Shown piece after piece: positions 3,837-56,100 of a DNA stretch of 64,000 bases (its first letter is position 1; every line of letters begins with the position of its first letter). The notes under the pieces were generated by a model, which had not been told where the DNA came from, searched no databases, and worked only from the letters and a program-made list of their open reading frames with translations. The translations under genes were made by a program, and so were the position numbers. The DNA is from Mytilus galloprovincialis (taxonomy: Eukaryota > Mollusca > Bivalvia > Mytilida > Mytilidae), in the NCBI RefSeq assembly GCF_965363235.1, contig NC_134839.1, positions 99,963,743 to 100,027,742 of the forward strand, written 5' to 3'.

Positions 3837-4342
3837 GCTATTTATTTATGAATTTTACAGATATATCAAAATGTGGGATCTGGAACAAACTTCACACAGC
3901 TTATATCAATCATATTTGATTTTATAAGTACATGTATCCCTGTGAAAAGAATTGTAACTGGGAACTTTATCAATGGAAAATTAAAACTGAATAGATTTTT
4001 CAGTCCTCACTTTCTTGAGAATACTGTCACAAAAAATTGAGAATGGTCTTAGCCTGCCGTTCAGTTGGACATAATTAAAATTCTAAAATATATTGTAGTA
4101 GTTGTTAAATTCAATTGAATTTTAGATAATTAACTCCCAACTTTAATTAAATGTTTTGATTTAGAAGGTGCAGATCTCATTGGTCCAAATTGTCTCTATG
4201 ATGAATTCTTGACTAAGGAAATGAAATATCAATAAACAACAATTAGTTTCATTATTGTCAGCCTTTCTATATGTTCTAGCTGTTCTTTTGCTCATTCTTT
4301 GTATGTAGACTATCAAAAGATACCCTCCTAAAAATTGAAACA

Positions 4343-4524
4343 ATGGCCGTCTTTTCCCTCAGAGCTCTTCAGCTCTTTGATTATGTGGTGGTGTGGTCTA
4401 GCGGGACGGCTACAGTGCAGACGATTTGGTGTCACGATATCTCAGTAGCATGGGTTCAAATCCCGGCGAGGGAAGAACAAAAAATTTGCGAAAGCAAATT
4501 TACAGATCTAACATTGTTGGGTTG
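4343..4524 (+). mobile_element. Solo tRNA-headed SINE copy
   Basis: This is a single dispersed copy of the sequence that forms part of the 441-bp array at 25.7-31.8 kb. It has an A-box-like TGGTCTAGCGGG and a B-box-like GGTTCAAATCC about 60 bp further on, both needed for internal Pol III promoters. A hairpin with the arms AAATTTGC and GCAAATTT follows. The B box here differs by one base from the array version (GGTTCGAATCC). The matching part runs from ATGGCC to about GGGTTG, after which similarity to the array unit ends. It cannot fold into a full tRNA acceptor stem, so it is a SINE and not a tRNA gene. Confidence 0.7.
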
Positions 4525-4767
4525 AATTTTTTTCCGTTTACATTGTTCGAATCGTCAAACAACTCTAATGGTACTTAAAAGCAGAAAATAATTAAGGGTC
4601 ATTGTGCCTGTTTTCAAGACGTAAGCCATTGAACATTTGACAAGACATAATTCTTTTAAAAAAACTTTGGCAGTTAGAGCAAAAGAAAAGGGAATTAAAG
4701 TAATAGATGGGTCATGGTCTATCTGTATACAACTCATTGTTGGGTTACTGTTAGACATAATTCATTT

Positions 4768-4851
4768 TTATTTCATATATACCTTCAATAACATATTATG
4801 TTAAATTAAGGTATATATGGGGGGGGGGGGGGGGTGAATTCTGAGACAAGT
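4768..4851. mobile_element. Truncated copy of the palindromic element at 5330-5430
   Basis: The centre (TATATACCTTCAATAACATA and its mirrored TTAAGGTATATATGGGG) and the right arm 'CTGAGACAAGT' match the element at 5330-5430. The left arm and the outer end of the right arm are missing. It carries an expanded G-run of about 17 bases. Confidence 0.55.
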
Positions 4852-5329
4852 AGTAGAATGAGAAAAAAGTATCAATAGCAACAAATATTCAGCTTAGTAA
4901 GATCAATAAACAAGTCAACATGATCAAAATAGTCAATTGACCTTTAAACGAGTTATTGCCCTGAAAACGTTCTTTTTAACACTTTTCACACACAAAAGGC
5001 TAATTACTTTTTTTCAAAAATCTTATTTATTTAACTACTTGATCAAATACCTCAAAACTGTACTTGAATGTTCCTTAGGATATTTTGTTCATAGAATGTA
5101 TTTGAGGATTTGATCAATTCAAAAACATGGCTGCAGTTTCTAAAAATAGAACAAAGGGGGCAAATGAAGTTTTTGACTGGCATCACAAACACTAAAGCAG
5201 TAAGAACCAAACTTGCATAAGTGAAAGTGTTTAACATGTTTAGATCTACCTGCTAAGTAATCTTCTGACCAATAGGACAACTTATTGTTGGGTTACTGTC
5301 CAGATTTTTTTTTTTTTTTAGGAAATATT

Positions 5330-12243: not shown

Positions 12244-15200
12244 ATGTCATACGGTCAACCTCCTTATAATCCAAACTACGGATGTCCCGGATATGGTCCT
12301 CCACAGCCATCCTATCCGTATGGACAAGGCGGACACGGCGGCGGATATCCACAGCAACCGTATCCTCAGCCATATTATGCACAACAACCACAAACGTAAG
12401 TTACGTTATTAGCACATATAATCTTTATTTTGGAATTCCACCTAACTCAGGCAAAGATGATTTTCTATCGCAGTCATAACTTATTTAAAACCAAATTCAT
12501 ACACACACCGATATTTTCAAATTTATTTGATCAAACAAACATTTTTTAAAGCTGGCAAATTTTAGTAACCTTAGTGGGTCTCCGACAGTCCTCATCTATA
12601 TACTCTTGCTTATAATATCTTATTAAAAATCGTTTGTCTGATTCCATCAAAGGACGTCTTATGGAGAGACATAGAACTTAGTTATACTGTGTACGTATGC
12701 TGTTACTGCTTTTTCCACATTGACATCACTTTAATATAATTATAGTCAATTTAACTATCGTAAGTTTATTGTCTCAATACTACGGAAGCGTATTAGGGAC
12801 ATAGTAAAAATTAAATTGGCAATGTACTTTTTTTTCAAAGTCCAAAGTTTGACATTTCAAATCTCGAAATTTTGACTTAAACTTGAAATTTTGACTTTTT
12901 TAAAACTGGAAATTTCGACTTTCTTTAAACTCAAGATTCGACTTATTGTTAACTCAAAATTTCGACTTTTTATAAACTCGAAATTTCGACTTTGAACTCG
13001 AAATTTCATTTTTTTAAATCTCGAAATTTTTAATATAAAGATAAAATTTTGACTTTTGAAATCTCGAAATTGTAACTTTTTCTAAGTATTTTTAAAACTT
13101 TGTTGTTAGTATTCAAACAGTTATTACAATTTTAGAAGGAGTAGACATGGACGCAAATTACTAAAGCGTCATTCATACATTTTGGCAATTTAAGAAATTG
13201 GTTTTATTCTTAAATTAATATTGAAGAGTTTCATTCGGAAAGAACATGCATGTGATAGAAAAAAAAATTTCCCCCATATTTCATGTTTTAGTTTCCACGA
13301 CATTGTCATAGGATCGTCAGCCCATGTTTTATAGTTGGTTTTAAAGGCCTGTTTTTCCCAAATAGCAAGTCACTGACTATGCCTTGTTTAAACAATGGTA
13401 AATTAAGTGGCAAATATGCCATGCATATTCAGGACAACTCATGAGCTGCTCAGTAATCTAGTTTATGAATTTTGAAATGTTGGTTCTTTTTTCTGGAACA
13501 TTTATTAAACTCTACAAGTTGGCATTCTTATGACACAACTATTAACCCTTGTCTTTTTATATTAGACTGTTGAATACAAGTTTGGCTACACGTTTGGCGT
13601 AATATAGGTGTGTCGGAATAACGCCCGGGGTTGTCTTGATACTCATATCTAAAGTCCAGACTTGAAATATATATTTGTACGTGAAACATATCATTCCATT
13701 TATTCTTCCGCGAAAACAAGATTTTCTTTTTTTTTTTTTTTTTTTTTTTAAATGTTCAAATATTTTATTTGAATTTTACATTTGTTAGAGATACATGAAG
13801 TACCGGTACCTTATCCCGGCCTCGTTAACGTTAGTATATAGCATTTTATTGATAAGTAAGTACTTGTTAGTGCACAATATGTATATATAGTAATAATGAC
13901 ATGTATGTAACTGAATAGAAATATGATAACAAGATGTATAATAAATTCTAATTTATGAAATTAATTTAATTTTTTCTGCAACCAGATTATGGAATTTTTC
14001 ATATTTGCCTTCTTTATTTATCAATATTTCGTGATATTGAAGAAATTCTTTTTTGAAAATTTCAAACATATTAATTTGTTTTGTTTTTTGTTCGGATGTA
14101 TAGTATCCTTTGTATACAGTAAAAATAATAATTGTAATTAAATCATTTATACTGTAGTAACTTGTATCGTTTATTTTGTATCCGTACAAAAGTGATTTAA
14201 TTGATATGATGTGATGTCCTATTTTAAGTTTATCAAGTAAAAGTTTTATTTTATCCCAAAATGATTTCAGAAATTTGCATGTTAAAAAGTAGTGCTCATA
14301 ATCTTCGATGACATCACAAATATTACATAGCGGAGTTTTAGTTATTTTCCAAGAGAAAAGTAATTGTTTGGTTGGTAAAATGTAGTGCAGAAATTTCCAT
14401 CTTAACATTTTGAATTTATTATCTTGTATATAATAAAAGATATAATTTAGCATTTGTTGTCTTTTGTTTGTGTTGTTTTCCAAGATAAATATGTTGTCCC
14501 ATTTTTGAAATCCTATTGGTTTTTCATAATATCTATTTAAGAGGGAGATGTAAATGTCTTTGGAGGAAATGTTTTTAAGTGATACCATTTTTCCTTTTTT
14601 ATCTTTAAATTTATATTCGGAGTCAGTGGCAACTTTTGTTTTTAATGATTCTTCTTTAGTTAGCTCTTGTAACCACTGTTTTGGTATTGCTTTCATTAAT
14701 ATAGAATATTCTGAAAACCAGTTAGCATGACAGGAAAGTTTATCTAAGATCATGTTTTGATTAAATTTTCCTTTATTATCAATAATGTCATTTAAAAAAA
14801 GAATTTTGCTGTTTATCCAGTTTTTGAAGATGAGACATTTACCGTTTAATTTGATATTTTTATTGCCCCATATAAGCTGCTGTCTTATTTGTTTATATGA
14901 TAGATGATTCAATTCCTTTTCAGATTTTGTATTTATCCATGATTTGATTATTCTTAAGTAAAATTGTGGAATTAGTTCTTTCAGTTTATAGACCAAATTA
15001 ATATTGTTGAAATTCATTTTAAATATAAGGAATTCTTGTCCAAATTTATCAAAATAAAATCTTGGCAATACTTTCCAATTGGGTGATAGATCTTCGTTTT
15101 CGATGAGTTTTTTTACCCAACTAATATTTATCGCTTCTAGATATTTATCTATGTTTATCATTTTAAGCCCGCCAGCATGGTAATTTTTACTTATTATATC

Positions 15201-18200
15201 CCTTTTAACCTTTTCAGATTTATTATTCCATATAAAACTGTATATTATTTTTTTAAATTTTGCTAGGTATTCGTTATCAATTTCGGTTACAGATGCAACA
15301 TAAGTAATATTCGGTAAGATTAATGATTTAACAAGAGTTATCTTACCTAACATAGTTAAATTTCTTTTATTCCAATCTTTAATTATTTTTTCAGATTTTT
15401 CGTATTGTCGTTGCAAGTTTAATTTTTTACACTCATTTTTATTAAGTCCAAAGTATATTCCTAAAACTTTTATAGGTTTTTGTGTAAAATTAATGTTTTC
15501 AACTTTATCTTTGCAGGCTTTTAAATTGCCGAGCCATATTCCTTCTGTTTTATTTCGGTTAAGCTTTAGGCCTGAAAGTGATCCAAAAATTTCTATAATA
15601 TTCAGAGTTAATGACACTTCTTGTTTTGAATTTAAAAATAAAGTGGTGTCGTCTGCAAGCTGGCTTAATTTTAATGTATGGGTTTTATTATCTAGTTTAA
15701 TTTGAAAGCCTTTAAAATTTTTATTTTGTCTTAATCTACTAGCTAAAATTTCAACAGCAATTACGAAAATTATAGAACTCGCGGGACACCCTTGACGGAT
15801 ACCGCGCTCAATGTTGAAGGGTCTTGAAATCCAGCCATTATTTAATATGCAACCCTTTATATCTGTGTATAAAGTATTTATCCACCTCAAAAGAGATTCC
15901 TGGAAGCCAAATTTCTTTAAAGAACAATACATAAATTCCCATTCTAGCGAGTCAAATGCCTTTGTGAAGTCTAAAAATAAGATAGCTCCATCTACATTGA
16001 ATTTTTCCGAATAATCTATAATATCCTGGATTTGTCTAATATTAAATCCTATATATCTGTTTTTTACATAACCGTTTTGATCACTATGAATGATTTTATG
16101 CAATATTGGTTTCAGTCTTTGTGCAAGAGAGTATGCTATAATTTTGGTATCTACATTTAGTAAGGTAATTGGTCTATAATTATCTAAATTTAATGGGTCA
16201 TTTTTCTTGTATATAAGGGTAATCAATCCAAGTTTCTGAGAATTTGTTAATTCTTTTTTTTCATAGCAATTATTAAAAACATCTACAGCAAAGGTTTGTA
16301 AATTTGACCAGAAAGCTCTATAAAATTCAATTGAGAGACCATCGATACCTGGTGTTTTATTAAGTTTCATTTTAAAAACAGATTGTGTACATTCCTCTAT
16401 TGTCAGGTTGCCGTCAATTTCATTACCTTCTTTTGTACTTAATTTGTAATTTATTTTAGTTTTTTCAATATAATTTTCAATTTCTGTTAGATCAGGATTA
16501 GTTGACTTATATAAATTGACATAATAATTTCTCCCCGTTTCTAATATTTTGCCTTGATCTTCTGTTAATTCTCCTTTACTGTCTCTTATAGCAGTAATGT
16601 TTTTCCTTGTTTGTCTTGATTTTTCTAATCCCAAAAAATATTTTGTATTTTTTTCGCCCTCTTCTATCCATTTAACTCGTGATCTTATTTGTGCCCCTTT
16701 TATTTTATCTGAATATAAAGTTTGTAGTGTTTCTTCTGTTTTATTTATTGAATCTATTATATTTGGCAAATTATTATTTTTTTCATCTATGTAGTTATCG
16801 TGAATTTCATTCAAAAGTTTAAGTTCTTGTTCTAGTTTTGTAATTTCATCTCTTTTATGTTTAGCTTTTATTTTACAATGTTCTATAGTTTTCTCTCTAA
16901 CTTCTATTTTAAAAAGATCCCACACGATTGCTAGACTTTTTTTATTTCTTAATTTTTCATATTTATCTATCAAAGTATTTATTTTTAGTTTGTATGATTC
17001 GTCGTTAAGGATATTATTGTTTAATTTGAAGTATCCCTTTCCTTTGTTCCCTTGACAATGATTAATTTTAAGTGAAATCGCTAAGTGATCTGTATATTGA
17101 ATTGTTGCAGGTCGTATATCAGTGCTGAGTACTCTTGGTCTCACATCTTCACTTACTAGAAAATAATCAATTCTACTAGCTACTTCATTATTTTTTCTTT
17201 TCCAGGTATATTGCGTTTTATTTGGATTTATAGCTCTCCATATATCTATAACTTTTAGTTTTTTTATCAGAGTTTTTAGCCCATTTGTCTTATTTTTTAT
17301 TTTTTGTTGATCTTTTCTATTACTTTTTCTATCTTTTATATTAAGCGTTTCATTCATATCACCGCCTATGATAATTATACCAAGACTATATTTTTCAATG
17401 ACACTTAAAGCTTTTTTAAAGAATATATTTCTATCTTTACTTGTGTTTGGGGCATAAAGGTTTACAAAAGTAAATATATTTTTGTCGATTTCTATGTTGA
17501 TTAAAACAATTCTTCCGTGTTGATCTACATATTTATCTATGATTTCATACTTAATTTTTTGGTTGATATAAATCGAAACACCTCTTGATTGTGTGCTTCC
17601 AAAACTATGATATAAATCGCCCGTAAATTCTTTATCTATTAAATTGTTCGAAAAATGTGTTTCTTGTAAAAATATTATGTTGCATTTTTGTTGTTTTATC
17701 CATTCTTTTAGTCTAATTCTTTTTTCATATTTTCCTAACCCCTGACAATTTAAAGAACATATATGCAATGGATTAAGTGACATCTTGATTTTGTTTTTAA
17801 AAAAGTATTTGATACATGTATTTCAAATATAAAAAGCATAATATACATACAAATATATACAGAATTTAGAGATAAAAATACAATCATATGTGCATCTCTA
17901 GTGACAGTTTTAGCTTTGACTGTACATGTGTGAGTTGCTAGACGAAATATAATTACATGTACACACATACATTTAATTTCATATTGACCGACTTTAATAG
18001 GTTTCCACCTATTTCTATATTTAGAATTGTTAGCTGGTAAAATATATTGACCTTCACATGTAAAACGATTAATTCGCACGAGGATTAACTTTAATAGACT
18101 AATATACCGTACATAGAAATATATAAATGTGATGGATGTAATATATATCTTTCTGAATTGGTGAGTATTGAATTTATTTTTCGTTAATTGTATATTTTTA

Positions 18201-23972: not shown

Positions 23973-25304
23973 TCAGAAATCCGAACACAGACAGCAACAA
24001 CACAACGCAGCTAGTAACACATACAGACATGTATCGTCACTCTTGTCTCGTCTTTCATGTACCACAACCCTACAACAATGTCAAAACAGAAAACATGTCA
24101 AACAGAAGTAGGAATGAAGCCTGGTTAATTAATAAAAGATTTGTTATTCACAATTCATAATGTAGATTAAACCATTTAAAAATCAATTCAAAAATTTACT
24201 GGCTTATAAGTTTACTACATTGTATGTAAACTTGTTACAACTTTTACTAAAAAGTTGAAACAGTGAACTGATTGCTTAATATAATTTCACGAATGGGTTG
24301 TGTATTTTTAAGTAACCACAGTAGTGTACCGACGTTCTAACTCCGAAAGAAGCGAGACCGGATATATAAGGGAGCTACCATTTGATTTTTATGGGGGGGG
24401 GGGGGGGGGCTAGGATGAAATTTGAAAAAAATAAGCAGGACAGGAGTTTTGAGTAAAAAAAAAGGCAGGATGAGACACTTACAAAAAAAAAAAAAAAAGT
24501 CAGGACGACAATTTAGGTAAAAAAAAGTCAGGATAAACTAAAAAAAAAAGGCAGGACCGAACAGAGTGAAAAATAAAAAGGCAGGACAGAGATTACAGCT
24601 ATAAAAAAGTGCAGGACAAAATTTTTCATCCTAGCCCCCTATAAAAATCAAATGGTAGCTCCCTAACTGATCTTGAATGAAAAATAGCCATTTCATATAT
24701 AGACATTGATGCTCTTCGTCAATTTTTTTGGTGCTCTCTCTGCATATGTTCACCTATTGTGAAGTAATATGTAGAAAAATAAAACTAATCAATGCATTAT
24801 TTTTCGATTTTCAGTTATATTAACGAGTAAAAGTTGTATGCAAAATTTTAACAAAATCTGTGAAATAGCCCATCTAACTTGACCTTAAAATAAACTTAGT
24901 GAATACTTGCAGTTTTTGGTGGGTTTTGTGTTGCTTAGTTTTCTATGTTGTGTCTTGTGTACTATTTGTCTGTTTGTGTTTCTTTTCTAGTCATAGTGTT
25001 GTCAGTTTGTTTTTGATCTATCATTTTAGATACCCCTCTTATAACACTGTTTGGTTCGAAGTATTTAATATACTTACGGTTGTTGGTTATATACAACTGT
25101 TGTATTTTGTTGTCCATGTTGTTGTTGAGGATATCCTCCTCCCTGTCCATATGGAAACTGTTGTGGTTGTTGTTGATGATGCTGTTGTGGATACTGCTGT
25201 GGATGTTGTTGTGGATAAGCTTGTTGGTTTGGTGGATACTGTGGATATCCAGGTTGTTGTGTTGTTGGGGAATAAGGAGGCGGTGGTGCTGATGGGTAAG
25301 ACAT
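23973..25304 (-). CDS. Small CYSTM-type protein with Pro-Gln-Tyr-rich N-terminus, two coding exons
   Basis: Exon 1 is 25304-25078 with donor CC|GTAAGTA; exon 2 is 24069-23973 after GTTGTAG, ending in TGA. The phase (2) agrees, giving 107 residues. The first 75 are Pro-Gln-Tyr-rich ('PPPPYSPTTQQPGYPQY', then QQH and QQP repeats). The tail 'PVVVHERRDKSDDTCLYV' leads into a hydrophobic segment with four cysteines in a row and ends 'CLCSDF'. The intron phase, the VVVH junction and the CCCC tail match the gene at 12244-21418, so the two are paralogues in tail-to-tail orientation. I chose the ATG starting 'MSYPS' because it matches the paralogue's 'MSYGQ'. An acceptor-like TTTTACAG lies just upstream, implying a 5' UTR exon. 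The intron contains a MITE and a dispersed repeat. Confidence 0.8.
24370..24663. mobile_element. 294-bp MITE with TAA duplication, G-run termini and internal tandem repeats
   Basis: The ends GGGAGCTACCATTTGATTTT plus a G-run and CTAGGATGAAA are mirrored at 24620-24663. TAA flanks both sides (24367-24369 and 24664-24666). The interior consists of six or seven degenerate units of the form A-run plus 'GGCAGGACAGA'. It shares the terminal design ACCATTTGATTTT..TGGGGGGGCTA with the element at 792-1073, so the two are one family or sister families. It is in the intron of the minus-strand CYSTM-type gene. Confidence 0.7.
24902..25030 (+). repeat. Dispersed repeat fragment shared with 59791-59999
   Basis: The words 'TTTTCTATGTTGTGTC' and 'AGTGTTGTCAGTTTGTTTTTGAT' (in pieces) recur at about 59870-59955 with moderate divergence. 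The function is unknown. It lies within 50 bp of the splice donor of exon 1 of the CYSTM-type gene. Confidence 0.5.
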
Positions 25305-25724
25305 ATTACTGTAAAATAAAAAAATAAAAAAATGATAATACATTGTATATGTTAATTGACATTTAGTCTTGGTTGATAAAAACTCCGATGATTAGTTTAC
25401 CCTACAGACAAGTTAAATATAAGATATGTAAGCATTAAGGAGCCAACCATGCAGTCCTTGCTCTTATTTTTAAAATGTTGAGTACGTAGCGGAGAAATAA
25501 CTTATACCCATTCTTTAGACTTTCTATTGAACCTACATAATGTAATTGTTGAACCAATGAGGTGAGAACGTTACAACATTTATCAGCAAATAAAGACCTT
25601 ACTTTATACGTATACTTTGAGAGAGTGTTATGATTTCTTCTTTTCGCTGAAAAAGGGTTGTCTATGAAAAAGGGCACAGACATGATAGTTTTAGCCCTTT
25701 TAGATCTATCTATATATATATATA
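25305..25724. other. Putative promoter side of the minus-strand CYSTM-type gene
   Basis: This 420-bp stretch separates the gene start from the tandem array. No exon is evident. It ends in a TA microsatellite (25709-25730) that abuts the first array unit. Confidence 0.35.
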
Positions 25725-28700
25725 TATATACAACTCGTCTAAACATCAACCCAACAATGTTAGATCTGTAAATTTGCTTTCGCAAATTTTTGGTTCTTCC
25801 CTCGCCGGGATTCGAACCCATGCTACTGTGATATCGTGACACCAAATCGCCTGCACTGCAGCCGTCCCGCTAGTCCACACGACCACCTGGGCTCTCAAAA
25901 AAAGAGCTTTCGCTGGCCATGTGTTACCTTTCCACGTCAGTTTTAATCTAGCGGCGTACTACAGTACATGATATATAAGGCATGAAGATGTTATTGTTAC
26001 AGATCAGCTAAATTATCTATAGTAAAGGATCCTACAAATTAATGTAAGATACAGTCACAGAAAATAATTATATTCATAAGTACGTCTGAGTCAGTGACAA
26101 CCCTACAACAGATGTATCCATCGGATCGCCATCAATGATGGTGATACATGGCTGTGTACATAATGTATATACAACTCGTCTAAACATCAACCCAACAATG
26201 TTAGATCTGTAAATTTGCTTTCGCAAATTTTTGGTTCTTCCCTCGCCGGGATTCGAACCCATGCTACTGTGATATCGTGACACCAAATCGCCTGCACTGC
26301 AGCCGTCCCGCTAGACCACACGACCACCTGGGCTCTCAAAAAAAGAGCTTTCGCTGGCCATGTGTTGCCTTTCCACGTCAGTTTTAATCTAGCGGCGTAC
26401 TACAGTACATGATATATAAGGCATGAAGATGTTATTGTTACAGATCAGCTAAATTATCTATAGTAAAGGATCCTACAAATTAATGTAAGATACAGTCACA
26501 GAAAATAATTATATTCATAAGTACGTCTGAGTCAGTGACAACCCTACAACAGATGTATCCATCGGATCGCCATCAATGATGGTGATACATGGCTGTGTAC
26601 ATAATGTATATACAACTCGTCTAAACATCAACCCAACAATGTTAGATCTGTAAATTTGCTTTCGCAAATTTTTGGTTCTTCCCTCGCCGGGATTCGAACC
26701 CATGCTACTGTGATATCGTGACACCAAATCGCCTGCACTGCAGCCGTCCCGCTAGACCACACGACCACCTGGGCTCTCAAAAAAAGAGCTTTCGCTGGCC
26801 ATGTGTTACCTTTCCACGTCAGTTTTAATCTAGCGGCGTACTACAGTACATGATATATAAGGCATGAAGATGTTATTGTTACAGATCAGCTAAATTATCT
26901 ATAGTAAAGGATCCTACAAATTAATGTAAGATACAGTCACAGAAAATAATTATATTCATAAGTACGTCTGAGTCAGTGACAACCCTACAACAGATGTATC
27001 CATCGGATCGCCATCAATGATGGTGATACATGGCTGTGTACATAATGTATATACAACTCGTCTAAACATCAACCCAACAATGTTAGATCTGTAAATTTGC
27101 TTTCGCAAATTTTTGGTTCTTCCCTCGCCGGGATTCGAACCCATGCTACTGTGATATCGTGACACCAAATCGCCTGCACTGCAGCCGTCCCGCTAGACCA
27201 CACGACCACCTGGGCTCTCAAAAAAAGAGCTTTCGCTGGCCATGTGTTACCTTTCCACGTCAGTTTTAATCTAGCGGCGTACTACAGTACATGATATATA
27301 AGGCATGAAGATGTTATTGTTACAGATCAGCTAAATTATCTATAGTAAAGGATCCTACAAATTAATGTAAGATACAGTCACAGAAAATAATTATATTCAT
27401 AAGTACGTCTGAGTCAGTGACAACCCTACAACAGATGTATCCATCGGATCGCCATCAATGGTGGTGATACATGGCTGTGTACATAATGTATATACAACTC
27501 GTCTAAACATCAACCCAACAATGTTAGATCTGTAAATTTGCTTTCGCAAATTTTTGGTTCTTCCCTCGCCGGGATTCGAACCCATGCTACTGTGATATCG
27601 TGACACCAAATCGCCTGCACTGCAGCCGTCCCGCTAGACCACACGACCACCTGGGCTCTCAAAAAAAGAGCTTTCGCTGGCCATGTGTTACCTTTCCACG
27701 TCAGTTTTAATCTAGCGGCGTACTACAGTACATGATATATAAGGCATGAAGATGTTATTGTTACAGATCAGCTAAATTATCTATAGTAAAGGATCCTACA
27801 AATTAATGTAAGATACAGTCACAGAAAATAATTATATTCATAAGTACGTCTGAGTCAGTGACAACCCTACAACAGATGTATCCATCGGATCGCCATCAAT
27901 GATGGTGATACATGGCTGTGTACATAATGTATATACAACTCGTCTAAACATCAACCCAACAATGTTAGATCTGTAAATTTGCTTTCGCAAATTTTTGGTT
28001 CTTCCCTCGCCGGGATTCGAACCCATGCTACTGTGATATCGTGACACCAAATCGCCTGCACTGCAGCCGTCCCGCTAGACCACACGACCACCTGGGCTCT
28101 CAAAAAAAGAGCTTTCGCTGGCCATGTGTTACCTTTCCACGTCAGTTTTAATCTAGCGGCGTACTACAGTACATGATATATAAGGCATGAAGATGTTATT
28201 GTTACAGATCAGCTAAATTATCTATAGTAAAGGATCCTACAAATTAATGTAAGATACAGTCACAGAAAATAATTATATTCATAAGTACGTCTGAGTCAGT
28301 GACAACCCTACAACAGATGTATCCATCGGATCGCCATCAATGATGGTGATACATGGCTGTGTACATAATGTATATACAACTCGTCTAAACATCAACCCAA
28401 CAATGTTAGATCTGTAAATTTGCTTTCGCAAATTTTTGGTTCTTCCCTCGCCGGGATTCGAACCCATGCTACTGTGATATCGTGACACCAAATCGCCTGC
28501 ACTGCAGCCGTCCCGCTAGACCACACGACCACCTGGGCTCTCAAAAAAAGAGCTTTCGCTGGCCATGTGTTACCTTTCCACGTCAGTTTTAATCTAGCGG
28601 CGTACTACAGTACATGATATATAAGGCATGAAGATGTTATTGTTACAGATCAGCTAAATTATCTATAGTAAAGGATCCTACAAATTAATGTAAGATACAG

Positions 28701-31700
28701 TCACAGAAAATAATTATATTCATAAGTACGTCTGAGTCAGTGACAACCCTACAACAGATGTATCCATCGGATCGCCATCAATGATGGTGATACATGGCTG
28801 TGTACATAATGTATATACAACTCGTCTAAACATCAACCCAACAATGTTAGATCTGTAAATTTGCTTTCGCAAATTTTTGGTTCTTCCCTCGCCGGGATTC
28901 GAACCCATGCTACTGTGATATCGTGACACCAAATCGCCTGCACTGCAGCCGTCCCGCTAGACCACACGACCACCTGGGCTCTCAAAAAAAGAGCTTTCGC
29001 TGGCCATGTGTTACCTTTCCACGTCAGTTTTAATCTAGCGGCGTACTACAGTACATGATATATAAGGCATGAAGATGTTATTGTTACAGATCAGCTAAAT
29101 TATCTATAGTAAAGGATCCTACAAATTAATGTAAGATACAGTCACAGAAAATAATTATATTCATAAGTACGTCTGAGTCAGTGACAACCCTACAACAGAT
29201 GTATCCATCGGATCGCCATCAATGATGGTGATACATGGCTGTGTACATAATGTATATACAACTCGTCTAAACATCAACACAACAATGTTAGATCTGTAAA
29301 TTTGCTTTCGCAAATTTTTGGTTCTTCCCTCGCCGGGATTCGAACCCATGCTACTGTGATATCGTGACACCAAATCGCCTGCACTGCAGCCGTCCCGCTA
29401 GACCACACGACCACCTGGGCTCTCAAAAAAAGAGCTTTCGCTGGCCATGTGTTACCTTTCCACGTCAGTTTTAATCTAGCGGCGTACTACAGTACATGAT
29501 ATATAAGGCATGAAAATGTTATTGTTACAGATCAGCTAAATTATCTATAGTAAAGGATCCTACAAATTAATGTAAGATACAGTCACAGAAAATAATTATA
29601 TTCATAAGTACGTCTGAGTCAGTGACAACCCTACAACAGATGTATCCATCGGATCGCCATCAATGATGGTGATACATGGCTGTGTACATAATGTATATAC
29701 AACTCGTCTAAACATCAACCCAACAATGTTAGATCTGTAAATTTGCTTTCGCAAATTTTTGGTTCTTCCCTCGCCGGGATTCGAACCCATGCTACTGTGA
29801 TATCGTGACACCAAATCGCCTGCACTGCAGCCGTCCCGCTAGACCACACGACCACCTGGGCTCTCAAAAAAAGAGCTTTCGCTGGCCATGTGTTACCTTT
29901 CCACGTCAGTTTTAATCTAGCGGCGTACTACAGTACATGATATATAAGGCATGAAGATGTTATTGTTACAGATCAGCTAAATTATCTATAGTAAAGGATC
30001 CTACAAATTAATGTAAGATACAGTCACAGAAAATAATTATATTCATAAGTACGTCTGAGTCAGTGACAACCCTACAACAGATGTATCCATCGGATCGCCA
30101 TCAATGATGGTGATACATGGCTGTGTACATAATGTATATACAACTCGTCTAAACATCAACCCAACAATGTTAGATCTGTAAATTTGCTTTCGCAAATTTT
30201 TGGTTCTTCCCTCGCCGGGATTCGAACCCATGCTACTGTGATATCGTGACACCAAATCGCCTGCACTGCAGCCGTCCCGCTAGACCACACGACCACCTGG
30301 GCTCTCAAAAAAAGAGCTTTCGCTGGCCATGTGTTACCTTTCCACGTCAGTTTTAATCTAGCGGCGTACTACAGTACATGATATATAAGGCATGAAGATG
30401 TTATTGTTACAGATCAGCTAAATTATCTATAGTAAAGGATCCTACAAATTAATGTAAGATACAGTCACAGAAAATAATTATATTCATAAGTACGTCTGAG
30501 TCAGTGACAACCCTACAACAGATGTATCCATCGGATCGCCATCAATGATGGTGATACATGGCTGTGTACATAATGTATATACAACTCGTCTAAACATCAA
30601 CCCAACAATGTTAGATCTGTAAATTTGCTTTCGCAAATTTTTGGTTCTTCCCTCGCCGGGATTCGAACCCATGCTACTGTGATATCGTGACACCAAATCG
30701 CCTGCACTGCAGCCGTCCCGCTAGACCACACGACCACCTGGGCTCTCAAAAAAAGAGCTTTCGCTGGCCATGTGTTACCTTTCCACGTCAGTTTTAATCT
30801 AGCGGCGTACTACAGTACATGATATATAAGGCATGAAGATGTTATTGTTACAGATCAGCTAAATTATCTATAGTAAAGGATCCTACAAATTAATGTAAGA
30901 TACAGTCACAGAAAATAATTATATTCATAAGTACGTCTGAGTCAGTGACAACCCTACAACAGATGTATCCATCGGATCGCCATCAATGATGGTGATACAT
31001 GGCTGTGTACATAATGTATATACAACTCGTCTAAACATCAACCCAACAATGTTAGATCTGTAAATTTGCTTTCGCAAATTTTTGGTTCTTCCCTCGCCGG
31101 GATTCGAACCCATGCTACTGTGATATCGTGACACCAAATCGCCTGCACTGCAGCCGTCCCGCTAGACCACACGACCACCTGGGCTCTCAAAAAAAGAGCT
31201 TTCGCTGGCCATGTGTTAGCTTTCCACGTCAGTTTTAATCTAGCGGCGTACTACAGTACATGATATATAAGGCATGAAGATGTTATTGTTACAGATCAGC
31301 TAAATTATCTATAGTAAAGGATCCTACAAATTAATGTAAGATACAGTCACAGAAAATAATTATATTCATAAGTACGTCTGAGTCAGTGACAACCCTACAA
31401 CAGATGTATCCATCGGATCGCCATCAATGATGGTGATACATGGCTGTGTACATAATGTATATACAACTCGTCTAAACATCAACCCAACAATGTTAGATCT
31501 GTAAATTTGCTTTCGCAAATTTTTGGTTCTTCCCTCGCCGGGATTCGAACCCATGCTACTGTGATATCGTGACACCAAATCGCCTGCACTGCAGCCGTCC
31601 CGCTAGACCACACGACCACCTGGGCTCTCAAAAAAAGAGCTTTCGCTGGCCATGTGTTACCTTTCCACGTCAGTTTTAATCTAGCGGCGTACTACAGTAC

Positions 31701-31848
31701 ATGATATATAAGGCATGAAGATGTTATTGTTACAGATCAGCTAAATTATCTATAGTAAAGGATCCTACAAATTAATGTAAGATACAGTCACAGAAAATAA
31801 TTATATTCATAAGTACGTCTGAGTCAGTGACAACCCTACAACAGATGT
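25725..31848 (-). repeat. Tandem array of 13.9 units of 441 bp with an embedded tRNA-headed SINE
   Basis: The unit start CAACTCGTCTAAAC recurs every 441 bp from 25731 to 31464, giving 13 full units and a last one of about 385 bp. Each unit, read on the minus strand, has an A-box-like TGGTCTAGCGGG and a B-box GGTTCGAATCC, flanked by hairpins (GGCTCTC..AGAGC, and AAATTTGC..GCAAATTT), followed by a non-tRNA part of about 240 bp. Only about six single-base differences were seen in the whole array, each private to one unit (for example 25874, 26367, 27461, 29279, 29515, 31219). The SINE part matches the solo copy at 4343-4524, which lacks the rest of the unit. The open frame of 70 codons in each unit is a by-product. 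Confidence 0.95.
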
Positions 31849-50100: not shown

Positions 50101-53100
50101 CAGAAACAGTGATAAAAGGCAACAATCGGACTGTGTCGATACAACTGCTGTTAGTGGTTTCCTCTACTAGAGTATCTACAGCCCAGCAGTCAACACAAAA
50201 CTACACAAAACACCTTACAAATATAGATTTATTTCGTCTTCTAGCCATTGCTCCACTACTAAATTATCTATTCTTCTTACCAGTACACTTGGTACAATCA
50301 AAAACCTGATAATAAATAGTTCAAATAAGGCCTTCGAAAATAGTGGAATTAATTACTTTTGGAGTGTCAAAAACTCGTTGGAAGTACTTGATAAATTGCA
50401 TGCTTATCTTGGTGATTTTGAATCTGTTCAAAGTTTTGATTTTTCTACCCTATATACCACATTGCCTCACATTCTCATTAAGAAAAAAATCACACACCTA
50501 ATTAAATGGGCATTTAAAAAGTCAAAATGTGAATATATATGTTTAAATTCTTTTAGGTTATTTTTTAGTAGCAATAAACAAAAAAAAAACTATGTCAATA
50601 TGTCAATTGGACATGCTTTGATACTATATCTGCCCTTGAATTTTTACTAGATAACATTTTCGTTCGCTTTGGAGATTCCGTATATCGTCAGGTTATCGGA
50701 ATTCCAATGGGGACTAACTGTGCACCACTTATTGCGGACCTTTTTTTGTATTGCTATGAGTTACAATTTATGACAAAAATCAGCAAAGACCCATCGAAAC
50801 AACATCTGATACACAAATTTAATAATACTTTTAGATATTTGGATGATAGTTTGGCTCTCAATAATGACGACTTCAGTATTTATACTAAAGAAATTTATCC
50901 TGTTGAACTTACTTTAAATAAAGCTAATACTAACAATGACCACTGCTCTTTCCTCGATCTTGATATATATATCATTAACGGAAAGCTTAATACTAAAATT
51001 TATGATAAAAGAGATGATTTCTCATTTCCTATCGTTAATCATCCATTTTTAGACGGTGACGTTCCATTGTCACCATCTTACGGGGTTTATATATCTCAAC
51101 TTGTACGATTCGCTCGTGTATGTAACAATGTTTTAGATTTTAACGAGATAAATTTATGTATTACTGAAAAATATTACACCAGGGTTTTAGATATCACAAA
51201 CTAGTCAAAACATTTACTAAATTTTATCATCGGTATAAGGACATCATTCGTAAATATAGCTCAACATGCAGACTTCTTATACGTTCAGGTATTTCACATC
51301 CAATATTTTATGGAAATATTCCTTATAAAGCAAAAAAATGTCAGTATTCACCTCAGAAACTGACAAAACCTTTAAATAGACTTATTAAGAAGGGATATAG
51401 TTACGATACCGTTGTCAAGTCACTAAAGATTGCATATTTTGGCGTTAATATTGATTCACTTATAGGGTCTTTACATCGGAACTAAACACACTTATTATAA
51501 ATAAACCAGTTGTTGGCATGACACGGGTTATGTTCTTCTCATATATGTTATGATGGTATGATACTAAACCCCTCACGGGGAGGATTGTGCCTGATATTCA
51601 TATGATGGCGACATAATTTTTCAATCAGTTTAATTGAAGTCTGGAGCTGGCATGTCAGTTAGCTGCTAGTATTCTGATGTTATTTATGTATTATTGTCAT
51701 TTTGTTTATTTTCTTTGGTTACATCTTCTGACATCAGACTCGGACTTTTTTAATTTTGATTAATTTTAATGTGCGTATTGTTATGCGTTTACTTTTCTGC
51801 ACTGGCTAGAGGTATAGGGGGAGGGTTGAGATCTCACAAACATGTTTAACCCCGATACATTTATTGCGCCTGTCCCAAGACAGGAACCTCTGGCCTTTGT
51901 TAGTCTTGTATTATTTTAACTTTAAGTTTCTTGTGTACAATTTGGAGTTTAGTATGGTGTTCATTGTCACTGAACCAGTATATATTTGTTTAGAGGCCAG
52001 CTGAAGTACGCCTCCGGGTGCGAGAATTTCTCGTTGCATTGAAGACCTGTTGGTGACCTTCTGCTGTTGTCTGCTCTATGGTCGGGTTGTTGTATCTTTG
52101 ACACATTCTCCATTTCCATTCTCAATTTTAACACTTCGGTGATGACATGAATTATCATTAATATTGGGATATTTATAAATTGATTGTGTAATATTAACGG
52201 TACCAATTTTCCTGCACAAGATGCTCATTTCGACAATTCATGTCTCTTCAGTGATGCTCGTGTCCAAAATAATTGAAATCCAAAGCTTATATAAAAGATG
52301 AAGAGCTATAATCCAAAAGTTCCAAAAAGTATAGCCAAATCCGTGAAAGGAATCAGAGCTTTGCATGAGGGATATACATTCCTTAATTTAGAATAATGTC
52401 TAACATTTTGTTTTTTGAGTTGTTTTAAAACTAATGATTTGCTACCCCAGGAATAGATTACTTAAGCTGTATTTGGCCTTACCTTTCAGAATTTCGACCC
52501 TCGATCAATGGTTTTAATGTCCGTGCGCCTCAAGTACAAACTAAAAGCCTGATATCTTGAGGGTTTTTTTTTTTAATTGTCAGTGCATTTATACGTTTGT
52601 TCCATACGAACATTACATTATATGTTATGTTGCTTTTCAAAGTTTTCTTTCTATTAACAATTGTTTTTAAATCTGATTTAAAATTCTTGACTGAGAGCAT
52701 TATATTAGAACATGTAGTTTTAATGACGGGATATCTCGGGTAAATAAATGTTAAACCAACTTAACATACGCCTGAAAGAAAGAAAAAGATAAGCTAGAAT
52801 AAAATATCTTCGGATTATCAGTACACAATTTCATATGGTAACGATATTGACTAACGCCTTTGTTATGAAATACGCACGGATACATTTAAAAAAAAAATTA
52901 AAAAAAGTACTGTAAAAAAACTCACCTAAAATTTTCTAAAGGATAACCTGTTATGCCAATAAACTTTGCCTTTCCACTGTCTTTGATTTTCTGGAGAGCT
53001 GGTAGTGTTTCATTGATAATTATGTCTAAATTAGGCGCAAATTCCATGTCGTGCACCTAGAATACATGTACATAACTTTTCAAGACCATACCCCTAGATT

Positions 53101-56100
53101 TTAATACCAAAATATAAGTTCTATTTCCTCATCCTTATCAATAAGTATACATATCATTTAGTGATTGCATAAGGTCTATCTGTTAAGTATGTACATGTGT
53201 TAAAACGTAAACTGACCGTAGAGTAACAATACTAGTATAGAACATGTATTGCGGGTATCTCGGAATCATTTTGAAATACTGTAACTCGAATAGTTCATGG
53301 TTGTCACTGTTGTGGTATAAAATTCAAGAGCATTGAGGACCCAAAATTCCAAAAAGTTTTGCTAAAACTCGAAATAAGGACAACTGAATAGTTTAAATTC
53401 TATTTTTGTTTTTCTCCTTTCACCAAAATCATATCCATAAATAAAGGCAACAGAGTATACCGGTGTTCAAACAAAAACGTTTTTGTGTTCTAATTAAGAT
53501 TTGTATTTCAATGGTCAGTATTATACTGTATTATGAAGTCATATATATGACAGAATTATGCAAAACAAAAATACTATTCGATTGTGTGAATCAGTTCATA
53601 AATACTGTACAAAAAATCTATACACATTATAATTTGCACAACATTACAATTTGTACACAACATACAAATTGTTTATTTTTTGGCATTTGACATTCATGCT
53701 TACTTCTTTTGTGAAGACCGATTGATATTGTCGGTTCCAAATGAAAGCTTTGTCTATGGCAGTGTTGAATAATCTTTTTAGTCTTTTGATAGTGTTATCC
53801 CAGCGCTGGTTTTTTTTTCAGAGATTTCGTTTTCTTCATTATAAATCTAATTAAGATATAGAACTGTGATTTTTTTATACTTCACTATATGGAGTATGAC
53901 GAAGTCAGAGTTCAAAATTTAATTAGATTGATTTAGTGTGTGGAAGATGCGTTCATCAATCTACCATTCTTTTATGTTTAAACATATTTTATTGTTCAAA
54001 ATGACAAAAGGATTAGACACAAGTTCTACGACTTAGTAACGTCTTCTACCATTCTTTTGTTCTCTCTTGACAAGTTATTTAGTCTGCCAGATGCTTGTAA
54101 ATATTCACATTTTAGTGAGTGCTTGCATATAATATATCCCAGTGAACTTGATATAAAGGATACTACCGCAAGTATAAGATATAATTCATATCTTGATCTC
54201 GTCTTCGATATTGTCACAGATCTAGAATCTAAGACAAACGTAATGGCTTTAGCTTTCCAATTGTCAACTCACCCCGATTCATTGTCCACTATCCCGGGTA
54301 TAACTTTTATTTTGTTTCCTAATGAACTGTTGCTAATAAGGAACAAATCCTGTGTTTTCTTGCCGGTTTGTTTACTTCCTTTTGGTTCATGACATTTTGG
54401 TTTAGGAAGCGATCTTAGCTGATGTCTTGCATTCAACGGGACCCTGTTTTACTAAGTATTATTTTACAGTTTCATATTCCCAATGATATTGACCAGTTTT
54501 AAGTCTGCCCAAGCTATACACATGATCCCACTGCTATCCTGGACATGCTCGTGTGGATGTGAGAATGCTATTGAATGTCTTCTTAATCTCAATATCGGCG
54601 GGATAATTCTAAACGCAGGTTGCTTGAGCCTGTTATTTTGGCTTATAGTATATGAGTTCAAAGTTTCCATTTATTTTTATTCATTCTGGTCCAAAATATA
54701 TATCATAAAAAATATTTCCTAATCTGTTTAAATTTTCTGTTTATATAATATTGAATCATTCGAAACACTAGTGTTTTTCTACCACTAGTATAGATTACCA
54801 AATTTTTATTTCAGGATCAAAATTTTCTATTAACGCCAGACGCGCGTTTCGTCTTAAAAAGGCTCATCAGTGACGCTCGAATCAAAAATGATTGAAAGGC
54901 CAAATAGAGTACAAAGTTGAAGAGCATTGAGGACCAAAAATTCCTAAAAGTTTTGCCAATTACAGCTAAGGAAATCAATTCATGAGGTAGAAAAGCCTTA
55001 GTATTTCATAAATTCATAGTTTTGTTAACAGTTAATTTATAATTATGAACATATCAATGATAACTCAAGTCAACAAATAAGTGCTGACTACTGGGCTGGT
55101 GATACCCTCGGGGAAATAAATCTCCACCAGTGGTTGCAAATAAACTCATCATAAATACCAGGATCAAAATTTCATATTTATGCCAGACGCGCGTTTCGTC
55201 TTAAAAAGACTCATCAGTGACACTCGAATCAAAAAATGTTTAAAAGGCCAAGTAGAGTACAAAGTTGAAGAGCATTGAGGACCAAAAATTCCTAAAAGTT
55301 TTGTCAAATACAGCTAATGTAATCTATTCCTGAGGTACAAATGAGTGAATTTAAAGGACAAAAGGTCATTTCAAGAATTGAATAAAATAAATTTGGTCTT
55401 ACAATTAAACTCTTTTTTTTTTTTTGGCTTCGTATAGTTTTGTTTATATTGAATTAACCTTTTCACTACCATATATCGTAAAACATTTTATATGACAGTT
55501 GTTTTTCACTCGTTTTGTTGTTATGTTTGATAATTTTTGATTTTGTCAGTTTTTATGGATTCTCTTTTATGAATTTGTCTTGCAGAAGACAGATTCAACA
55601 GGGGTTACGAAAAATGTAATATTAATTCTATACATTATGCGTTCCATCGTTCGTTTCTATGGACGTTGCATTGTTGTTTGTTCTTTGTTGCACTTCTGTG
55701 TTCTGTTATTTCGTTGTTTTTCCTCTTTCAGTTAACGTGTTTCCCTCGGTTTCTTTTTGTAACCAGGATTTTTTTTCTCTCAATCGATTTATGACTTTTG
55801 ATCGGCGATATGCTACTGTTGCCTTTGTTTATACCCTTTATCTTACCTGTATGATATCAATGTATTCCAACCCACGTCTACGCTTAAGAATAACAGTACT
55901 ATAGTCGTAGCGGAGACAGTAAAACGGAAATATGCGACCGTCAAATCAAAATTGACGGTTTCAACTCTTCAACTACAGTACTGTTATTCCGATTATAAAT
56001 TATAATGCATTACAAAAAAAAATAATACGTTAGAGCTTGAAAACATGTATAAATTTGACAAACAAAAATAATCCACGAAACTTTTAAATAACTTAATGAA

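What the first reader, a model, noticed from the sequence alone, without database searches (positions are those of the whole stretch)
25725..31848. Near-identical 441-bp tandem array built on a tRNA-headed SINE
A SINE present as a divergent solo copy at 4.3 kb is here part of 13.9 units that differ at only about six positions, each private to one unit. Private changes with no shared variants point to very recent amplification or strong homogenisation. A dispersed SINE becoming the core of a satellite-like array, with about 14 potential Pol III promoters in a row, is unusual and may be transcribed as a unit.
Basis: partly seen in the sequence, partly recalled or inferred. Interest (0 to 1): 0.75.

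Follow-up and report, generated by a model that had tools for sequence, protein, structure and literature searches.

The report
tRNA-headed Penelope-type tandem retroelement array
A near-perfect 14-copy DNA repeat turns out to be one of many scattered arrays of a small jumping element that carries a tRNA-like start and seems to be copied by Penelope-type retroelements rather than by the usual LINE partners.

Summary
In detail: 13.9 head-to-tail 441-bp units at 25725-31848 with six substitutions, each private to one unit. It is not a one-off SINE-turned-satellite. In the same 1.385-Gb genome the exact unit junction occurs 2,271 times and an exact TA-tailed terminus 1,399 times. Read on the minus strand (RNA sense), most copies end at one of two points, each "AGAC, a few bases, (TA)n", 94 nt apart, while 5' ends are scattered, sometimes with an inverted 5' arm. 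Autonomous Penelope-like elements (PLEs; RT plus GIY-YIG) in this genome end at two such points 93 nt apart, with GATCC similarly placed. A published PLE starts reverse transcription at two adjacent internal RNA sites (PMC11167929). Best reading: a non-autonomous, probably PLE-mobilised element with a tRNA-type Pol III head, inserted at (TA)n as a multimer copied from multi-unit or circular RNA. Against it: plain sequence similarity to PLE ends is weak, no target duplications were found, and DNA-level expansion after insertion is not excluded. Five literature searches showed no SINE with a PLE-type tail.

The parts
25725..31848 (-). Tandem array, 13.9 units of 441 bp; RNA sense is the minus strand, so the fixed 3' end is at 25725 and the truncated 5' end (sense position 51) at 31848
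25711..25724 (-). (TA)n tract at the 3' (sense) end of the array
25725..25743 (-). 3' terminus 1 (site 1), TTTAGACGAGTTGTATATA, exact in all 14 units; the array ends at this copy
   Evidence: TA-tailed form 1,399 times exactly genome-wide
26069..26090 (-). 3' terminus 2 (site 2), CTCAGACGTACTTATGAATATA, shown for unit 1, present in 14 of 14; not the end of this array but the end at other loci
   Evidence: TA-tailed form 521 times exactly genome-wide
26123..26127 (-). GATCC in unit 1, 40 nt before site 2 and 54 nt after site 1 of the preceding (sense) unit; similar placing in PLE 3' ends
25867..25877 (-). Pol III A box position (TGGTCTAGCGG) in unit 1; changed in this unit at 25874, exact in the 13 others
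   Evidence: consensus recalled
25808..25818 (-). Pol III B box (GGTTCGAATCC) in unit 1; exact in 14 of 14 units
   Evidence: consensus recalled
25897..25903 (-). T7 run just upstream of the tRNA-type head in unit 1: candidate Pol III terminator for transcripts begun in the upstream unit
   Evidence: role inferred
25908..25940 (-). CTGACGTGG...GCGAAA in unit 1; some older copies read CTGA(C/T)GAGG...CCACCGAAA, resembling a decayed hammerhead core (unproven)
   Evidence: no Rfam match, but PLE cores in the same search were missed too
4385..4525 (+). Divergent solo copy of the SINE part (sense 280-420), lacking both termini

Best explanation
The unit is a non-autonomous retroelement with a tRNA-type Pol III head and a Penelope-type (PLE) 3' end. 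A multi-unit RNA, linear or circular, is used by a PLE reverse transcriptase. The enzyme starts at either of two AGAC..TATA sites on an opened (TA)n target, runs back through one or many units and stops anywhere, leaving a fixed 3' end with (TA)n and a scattered 5' end, sometimes with an inverted 5' arm. The window array is a recent insertion of this kind, about 13.9 units made from one unit sequence. Shown: dispersal, two preferred termini, scattered 5' ends, inverted joints, (TA)n context, PLEs with open frames and the same two-terminus layout. Inferred: that PLE enzymes do the copying, that the array arose in one step, and the form of the RNA.
For: Dispersal. Of 62 stretches of the element at 37 array loci plus the window, the 3' end lies at site 1 in 44, site 2 in 7, elsewhere in 9, at a stretch edge in 2. 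5' starts spread over the unit. In 57 loci there are 12 head-to-head inverted joints, 7 with 1-7 bp overlap by BLAST ends; among the 150 PLE matches listed, 16 of 17 opposite-strand pairs within 5 kb face the same way (my reading of the list). PLE-1 encodes RVT_1 and GIY-YIG (2 frames scanned); of 12 loci it ends at site 1+TA in 4, at site 2+TA in 7, and beyond the stretch in 1. Composite motif (AGRC..TATA, GATCC, AGAC..TATA at set spacings): 158 hits among 762 GATCC in the fetched loci and window, 140 in this element, 15 in PLE families, 3 in a family with PLE-like ends; 1 of 3,000 shuffled units has it (motif defined after seeing both, and a few loci overlap). PMC11167929 (abstract and main text read): a PLE starts internally at two adjacent RNA sites, prefers AT-rich DNA, its ribozyme is not needed for insertion in vitro, and multi-copy transcripts are proposed. 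The window holds 8 full units identical to its consensus; no other examined locus holds more than 1.
Against: Plain alignment of the inter-site region with PLE-type ends is weak: 2 of 6 ends at about p 0.03, and other parts of the unit reach similar scores. The hairpin beside GATCC does not discriminate: 16 of 53 control GATCC score as high. No target-site duplication passed my test in 48 elements. 4 of 9 loci of other PLE families did not show the end motif in the stretch read. No PLE sharing this element's own tail sequence was found. In PMC11167929 the start sites are not homologous to the cut DNA and lie 30-40 bp apart; here they contain TATA, abut (TA)n and lie 94 nt apart. L022 and L034 have variants shared by some units, as satellites do. 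No ribozyme is confirmed in the unit.
Confidence: 0.62

Rival explanations
1. Retroposed short copies (by PLE or other), then grown into arrays by unequal exchange or replication slippage at the DNA level, as in ordinary satellites.
For: Most copies are short: 17 of 21 in the C1 sample are under one unit. Some arrays show shared partial variants or block patterns: L039 looks like two 12-unit blocks, L022 like a 5-unit pattern. A fast recent expansion would also give only private changes.
Against: In L022 both arms of an inverted pair joined with 5 bp overlap are multi-unit and share variant types, which would need two expansions or a later inverted duplication. The all-singleton pattern in the window is unlikely under gradual growth (0.039 and 0.007). 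The order tests for blocks are not significant (P 0.07 and 0.13), so the satellite-like pattern is itself unproven.
Confidence: 0.3
2. A conventional LINE-mobilised tRNA SINE with a (TA)n tail; likeness to PLE ends is coincidental.
For: Pol III-type boxes; sequence similarity to PLE ends is weak; a LINE frame with endonuclease, RT and zf-RVT lies in this window.
Against: Two alternative termini 94 nt apart, the GATCC placing and head-to-head arms match PLEs; LINE partners usually give one 3' end (recalled). LINE 3' ends were not surveyed here.
Confidence: 0.15
3. Central repeats of a non-autonomous Helentron (HINE), as reported for dispersed satellite-like arrays in Crassostrea gigas (PMC7492417, abstract and outline seen).
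For: Dispersed short arrays, as in that bivalve.
Against: No constant flanking modules: of 96 flanks of 300 bp, 50 resemble no other, 37 fall in one cluster that appears to reflect further copies of this same element, and 9 fall in four small clusters. Scattered 5' ends and (TA)n 3' ends do not fit.
Confidence: 0.02
4. Assembly artefact: one or two real units expanded in assembly.
For: Reads were not available.
Against: Private changes distinguish five units; multi-unit arrays occur at many other loci.
Confidence: 0.04

Closest known systems
Penelope-like elements (PLEs) with GIY-YIG endonuclease
   Same: Two adjacent 3' termini, AT-rich targets, partial tandem copies, inverted 5' arms (PMC11167929 abstract and main text; PMC3846280 passages); the same layout in PLEs of this genome
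   Different: No ORF, 441-bp unit, tRNA-type head, arrays up to 24 full units (L039), no proven hammerhead, 94 nt between sites
Metazoan non-LTR retrozymes, including Mytilus galloprovincialis repeats of 350-390 bp (PMC7229834: abstract, cnidarian, mussel and discussion sections read)
   Same: Short non-coding tandem units dispersed as retroelements; PLEs suggested as mobilising machinery
   Different: Retrozymes are defined by a type I hammerhead; none is confirmed here, and Pol III-type boxes are present
tRNA-derived SINEs
   Same: A and B boxes; some solo copies beginning at the head
   Different: End layout resembles PLEs; two termini; multimeric insertions; no tRNA found by model
SINE-derived satellites of squamates (PMC10702118: abstract and discussion read)
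   Same: SINE sequence in tandem arrays
   Different: Those derive from portions of SINEs and are likely subtelomeric; here the whole unit, SINE plus about 270 bp, appears to be the mobile element

Membership tests
Penelope-like element (non-autonomous derivative) | Two adjacent 3' termini | tested here: met
   sites 1 and 2, 94 nt apart, against 93 nt in PLE-1 of this genome; published tail is 30-40 bp (PMC11167929)
Penelope-like element (non-autonomous derivative) | Sequence homology to a PLE 3' end | tested here: inconclusive
   weak pairwise scores; composite motif present, but defined after the fact
Penelope-like element (non-autonomous derivative) | Tandem or partial tandem copies with inverted 5' arms | tested here: met
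Penelope-like element (non-autonomous derivative) | Mobilised by PLE protein | not testable with these tools
   needs a biochemical or cell assay
tRNA SINE | Pol III A and B boxes | tested here: met
   exact words in 13 and 14 of 14 window units; consensus recalled
tRNA SINE | Recognisable tRNA by model | tested here: not met
   ARAGORN and Rfam gave none
tRNA SINE | Solo copies with 5' end at the head | tested here: met
   5 of 12 loci chosen by SINE match, by eye; 3 of 21 starts at 266-276 in the C1 sample, P 0.015, interval chosen after seeing the data
tRNA SINE | LINE-derived tail | not tested
   no LINE survey made
Non-LTR retrozyme | Type I hammerhead ribozyme in the unit | tested here: inconclusive
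   no Rfam match; core-like remnant in older copies without an evident stem I; Rfam also missed the PLE cores that served as positive controls
Non-LTR retrozyme | Abundant circular RNA | not testable with these tools
   no RNA data
Classical satellite DNA | Few large heterochromatic blocks | tested here: inconclusive
   many short dispersed arrays and single copies were seen, but lists were capped and large blocks were not looked for
Helentron/HINE | Constant terminal modules around the repeats | tested here: not met

The most novel reading that the evidence does not exclude
A SINE that changed masters: a Pol III element that took a Penelope-type 3' end, lost an ancestral hammerhead, and spreads as a circular (or end-to-end multimeric) RNA copied round and round by PLE reverse transcriptase, so that single insertion events lay down ready-made satellite arrays. 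The tRNA-like head would take over RNA processing or circularisation from the ribozyme.
Probability: 0.22. Interest if true: 0.85.

Novelty: new variant of a known kind. Interest (0 to 1): 0.6.

Why it matters
SINEs are generally seen as parasites of LINEs. A Pol III element served by Penelope reverse transcriptase would add a partner class, give a short non-coding substrate for studying how PLEs start cDNA, and offer a direct route from mobile element to satellite array in one insertion. It also bears on the open question of which enzyme copies animal retrozymes, since the same genome holds PLEs with hammerhead-like cores and other repeats with similar-looking ends.

Tried and rejected
Ribozyme in the unit: cmscan of 25700-27100 at E up to 10 gave only chance matches to a bacterial sRNA family; 20 loci at gathering scores gave nothing; 8 loci at E up to 5, including three PLE loci (L070, L080, L085) with hammerhead-like cores by pattern, gave no hammerhead, so Rfam is uninformative for this type. 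A regular expression for the core also hits many unrelated places.

Sequence homology to PLE ends: tested with 500 dinucleotide shuffles per pair, weak. MAFFT of seven PLE-type ends did not line up GATCC, so no covariance model was built. Hairpin conservation at GATCC: dropped as an argument after the control (16 of 53).

Target-site duplications: 0 of 48, shuffled pairing mean 0.89. The filter leaves out two-letter words, so an AT-only repeat at L038, seen by eye, is not counted.

Circle against linear multimer: some arrays have array-wide variants, others have variants in part of the units; unit-order periodicity is not significant. Not settled. The circular fold of the unit is more stable than 30 mononucleotide shuffles (-135.0 against -106.0, sd 6.5), which does not show that a circle exists.

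PLE and element co-location on C1: 2 of 8 PLE clusters within 5 kb of a listed terminus, random mean 0.087, P 0.004; small numbers, and the terminus list was cut at 100 places.
Full report
What is there. The array at 25725-31848 is real: period 441, 13.9 copies, no indels, six differences from consensus in five units, none shared. On the minus strand, called sense here, the unit runs 1-441. It has a T7 run at 263-269, a Pol III A box at 289-299 and a B box at 348-358 (consensus recalled; exact words in 13 and 14 of 14 units), and ends in TTTAGACGAGTTGTATATA. Neither ARAGORN nor Rfam calls a tRNA. The array's sense 3' end runs straight into a (TA)n tract and its 5' end stops at unit position 51. 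The solo copy at 4385-4525 matches sense 280-420 at 95.7%.

It is a dispersed family. The window lies in a 1.385-Gb genome of 331 contigs; contigs C1-C14 seen here are 73-133 Mb. The search with one unit reported 187 matches, 39 of 299 first-look candidates being scored. The exact 30-bp unit junction occurs 2,271 times and the exact 27-bp TA-tailed site-1 terminus 1,399 times; the reversed control patterns gave 0. I fetched 38 regions covering 37 array clusters and 20 of 62 planned regions round the first listed C1 termini; one of these, L055, is the same locus as L009.

Two preferred 3' ends, free 5' ends. In the array loci plus the window, 62 stretches of the element end at site 1 in 44, at site 2 (sense about 97) in 7, elsewhere in 9 and at the stretch edge in 2; 23 of 61 5' flanks also end in TA repeat. 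The exact TA-tailed site-2 terminus occurs 521 times. In the C1 sample, selected for site-1 ends, 21 starts run from 5 to 399, 4 of 21 copies exceed one unit, and 3 of 21 starts fall at 266-276, just before the tRNA-type head (P 0.015 if uniform; the interval was chosen after seeing the data). Of 12 loci selected by SINE match, 5 (L089, L091, L092, L095, L096) begin at the head by eye. Across 57 loci, 12 joints are head-to-head, 7 of them overlapping by 1-7 bp, and 12 joints are tail-to-tail through a TA tract.

The Penelope link. Neighbouring repeats ending in 'TAGAC, few bases, (TA)n' led to it: 100 of 274 TA tracts (both strands counted) were preceded by AGAC within 8 bases against 18 for the reversed word; at least 76 of the 100 are this element. 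One array (L035) lies tail-to-tail with a reverse-transcriptase fragment. A search with that fragment scored 150 of 3,927 first-look candidates, all 150 listed. [quoted passage not shown] In the 12 fetched PLE-1 loci, 4 end at site 1+TA, 7 at site 2+TA 93 nt further on, 1 beyond the stretch. In 9 loci of other PLE families, 5 show the AGAC..TA end and 4 do not in the stretch read. Spacing: site 1 to GATCC is 54 nt here and 46-53 in the PLE-type ends; GATCC to site 2 is 40 here and 40-43 there; in the PLE4 family site 1 reads AGGC. A composite of the three parts hit 158 of 762 GATCC places in all fetched loci and the window: 138 assigned to this element by a sequence rule, 2 more on inspection, 15 in PLE families and 3 in family C, which has the same kind of end but no coding frame in the DNA fetched; 1 of 3,000 shuffled units had it. 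Some loci overlap (L009/L055, L035/L067), and the motif was defined after seeing both groups, so this is not an independent test.

Against the link. Pairwise alignment of the inter-site regions is weak (best z 2.5; 2 of 6 ends near p 0.03; two other parts of the unit reach z 2.4-2.7 with PLE1). The hairpin next to GATCC is common by chance (16 of 53). Target-site duplications were 0 of 48; PMC3846280 (passages read) reports PLE insertions with 8-10 bp duplications and one without, so this does not decide. No PLE with this element's own tail was found.

Published mechanism. PMC11167929 (abstract and main text read) shows purified Anolis PLE protein starting reverse transcription at two adjacent sites inside the RNA, preferring AT-rich DNA, explains the optional 'tail' of genomic copies by the two sites, finds the hammerhead unnecessary for insertion in vitro, and proposes transcripts of several tandem copies. 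The layout here fits in outline. It differs in spacing (94 nt against 30-40 bp) and in that the sites here contain TATA and abut (TA)n, whereas the Anolis sites are not homologous to the cut DNA.

How the array formed. The six changes are all singletons, improbable under gradual duplication (0.039 random duplication, 0.007 steady exchange). The window holds 8 full units identical to its own consensus; of the other examined loci five hold 1 and the rest none (129 full units), so no array seen could have served as a linear template of this exact sequence; only fetched, best-scoring loci were examined. One-step copying from a single-unit circle, or a very recent local burst, both fit. Other arrays vary: L031 and L014 have array-wide variants, L018 has one in 6 of 7 units, L034 and L022 have variants in part of their units, and L039 (24 full units) looks like two 12-unit blocks; order tests were not significant.

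Hammerhead question. PLEs here carry hammerhead-like cores by pattern. Some older copies of the element read CTGA(C/T)GAGG...CCACCGAAA just upstream of the head; the amplified unit reads CTGACGTGG...CAGCGAAA. No stem I is evident and Rfam could not judge. I treat this as a lead only.

Literature. Five searches bear on whether this is in print (one search listed 20 of 37 papers, the others all or nearly all). Their listings, and passages of PMC5753468, PMC10886601 and PMC10294476, showed no SINE served by a PLE and no 441-bp mussel repeat. The library lacks most subscription journals and all preprints. PMC7229834 (abstract and three sections read) reports mussel retrozymes of 350-390 bp with a hammerhead and suggests PLEs as mobilisers; a repeat of that kind seems to be in this window too.

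Noticed in passing
window about 54830-55223 (-): Two copies about 347 bp apart (read off) of a repeat with a type I hammerhead; Rfam reports the one at 55180-55223 (37.3 bits). Size and ribozyme resemble the published mussel retrozymes.
   Followed up: partly
window 13956-17822 (-): 1,289-aa stop-free frame with endonuclease, reverse transcriptase and zf-RVT domains: a LINE with a long open frame.
   Followed up: partly
window 50578-51201 (+): Frame distantly related to the PLE-1 reverse transcriptase (26% over 182 aa, E 1e-10 for the single comparison); no Pfam hit.
   Followed up: partly
L055 minus-strand reading about 1750-2930; also L018 (+) about 4020-4604, L061 (+) about 4740-4860: Repeat with hammerhead-like cores 546 bp apart in L055, ending '..CAATTTAGACTCG' plus TA beside the array: another short element with a similar end.
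   Followed up: partly
window 25074-25343 (-): P/Q-rich open frame starting about 370 bp from the array's TA end; possible coding exon of a host gene near the insertion.
   Followed up: no
flanks of L017, L019, L028, L047, L065: A recurring 'GTARGACTC.GAT..'-type repeat sits directly beside the TA tract in several loci (by eye).
   Followed up: no
G000 C8:33061978-33069021 and C11:15644704-15651363: PLE matches about 3.27 kb apart in the same orientation, and head-to-head pairs, suggest that PLEs here also form tandems (one search list).
   Followed up: partly
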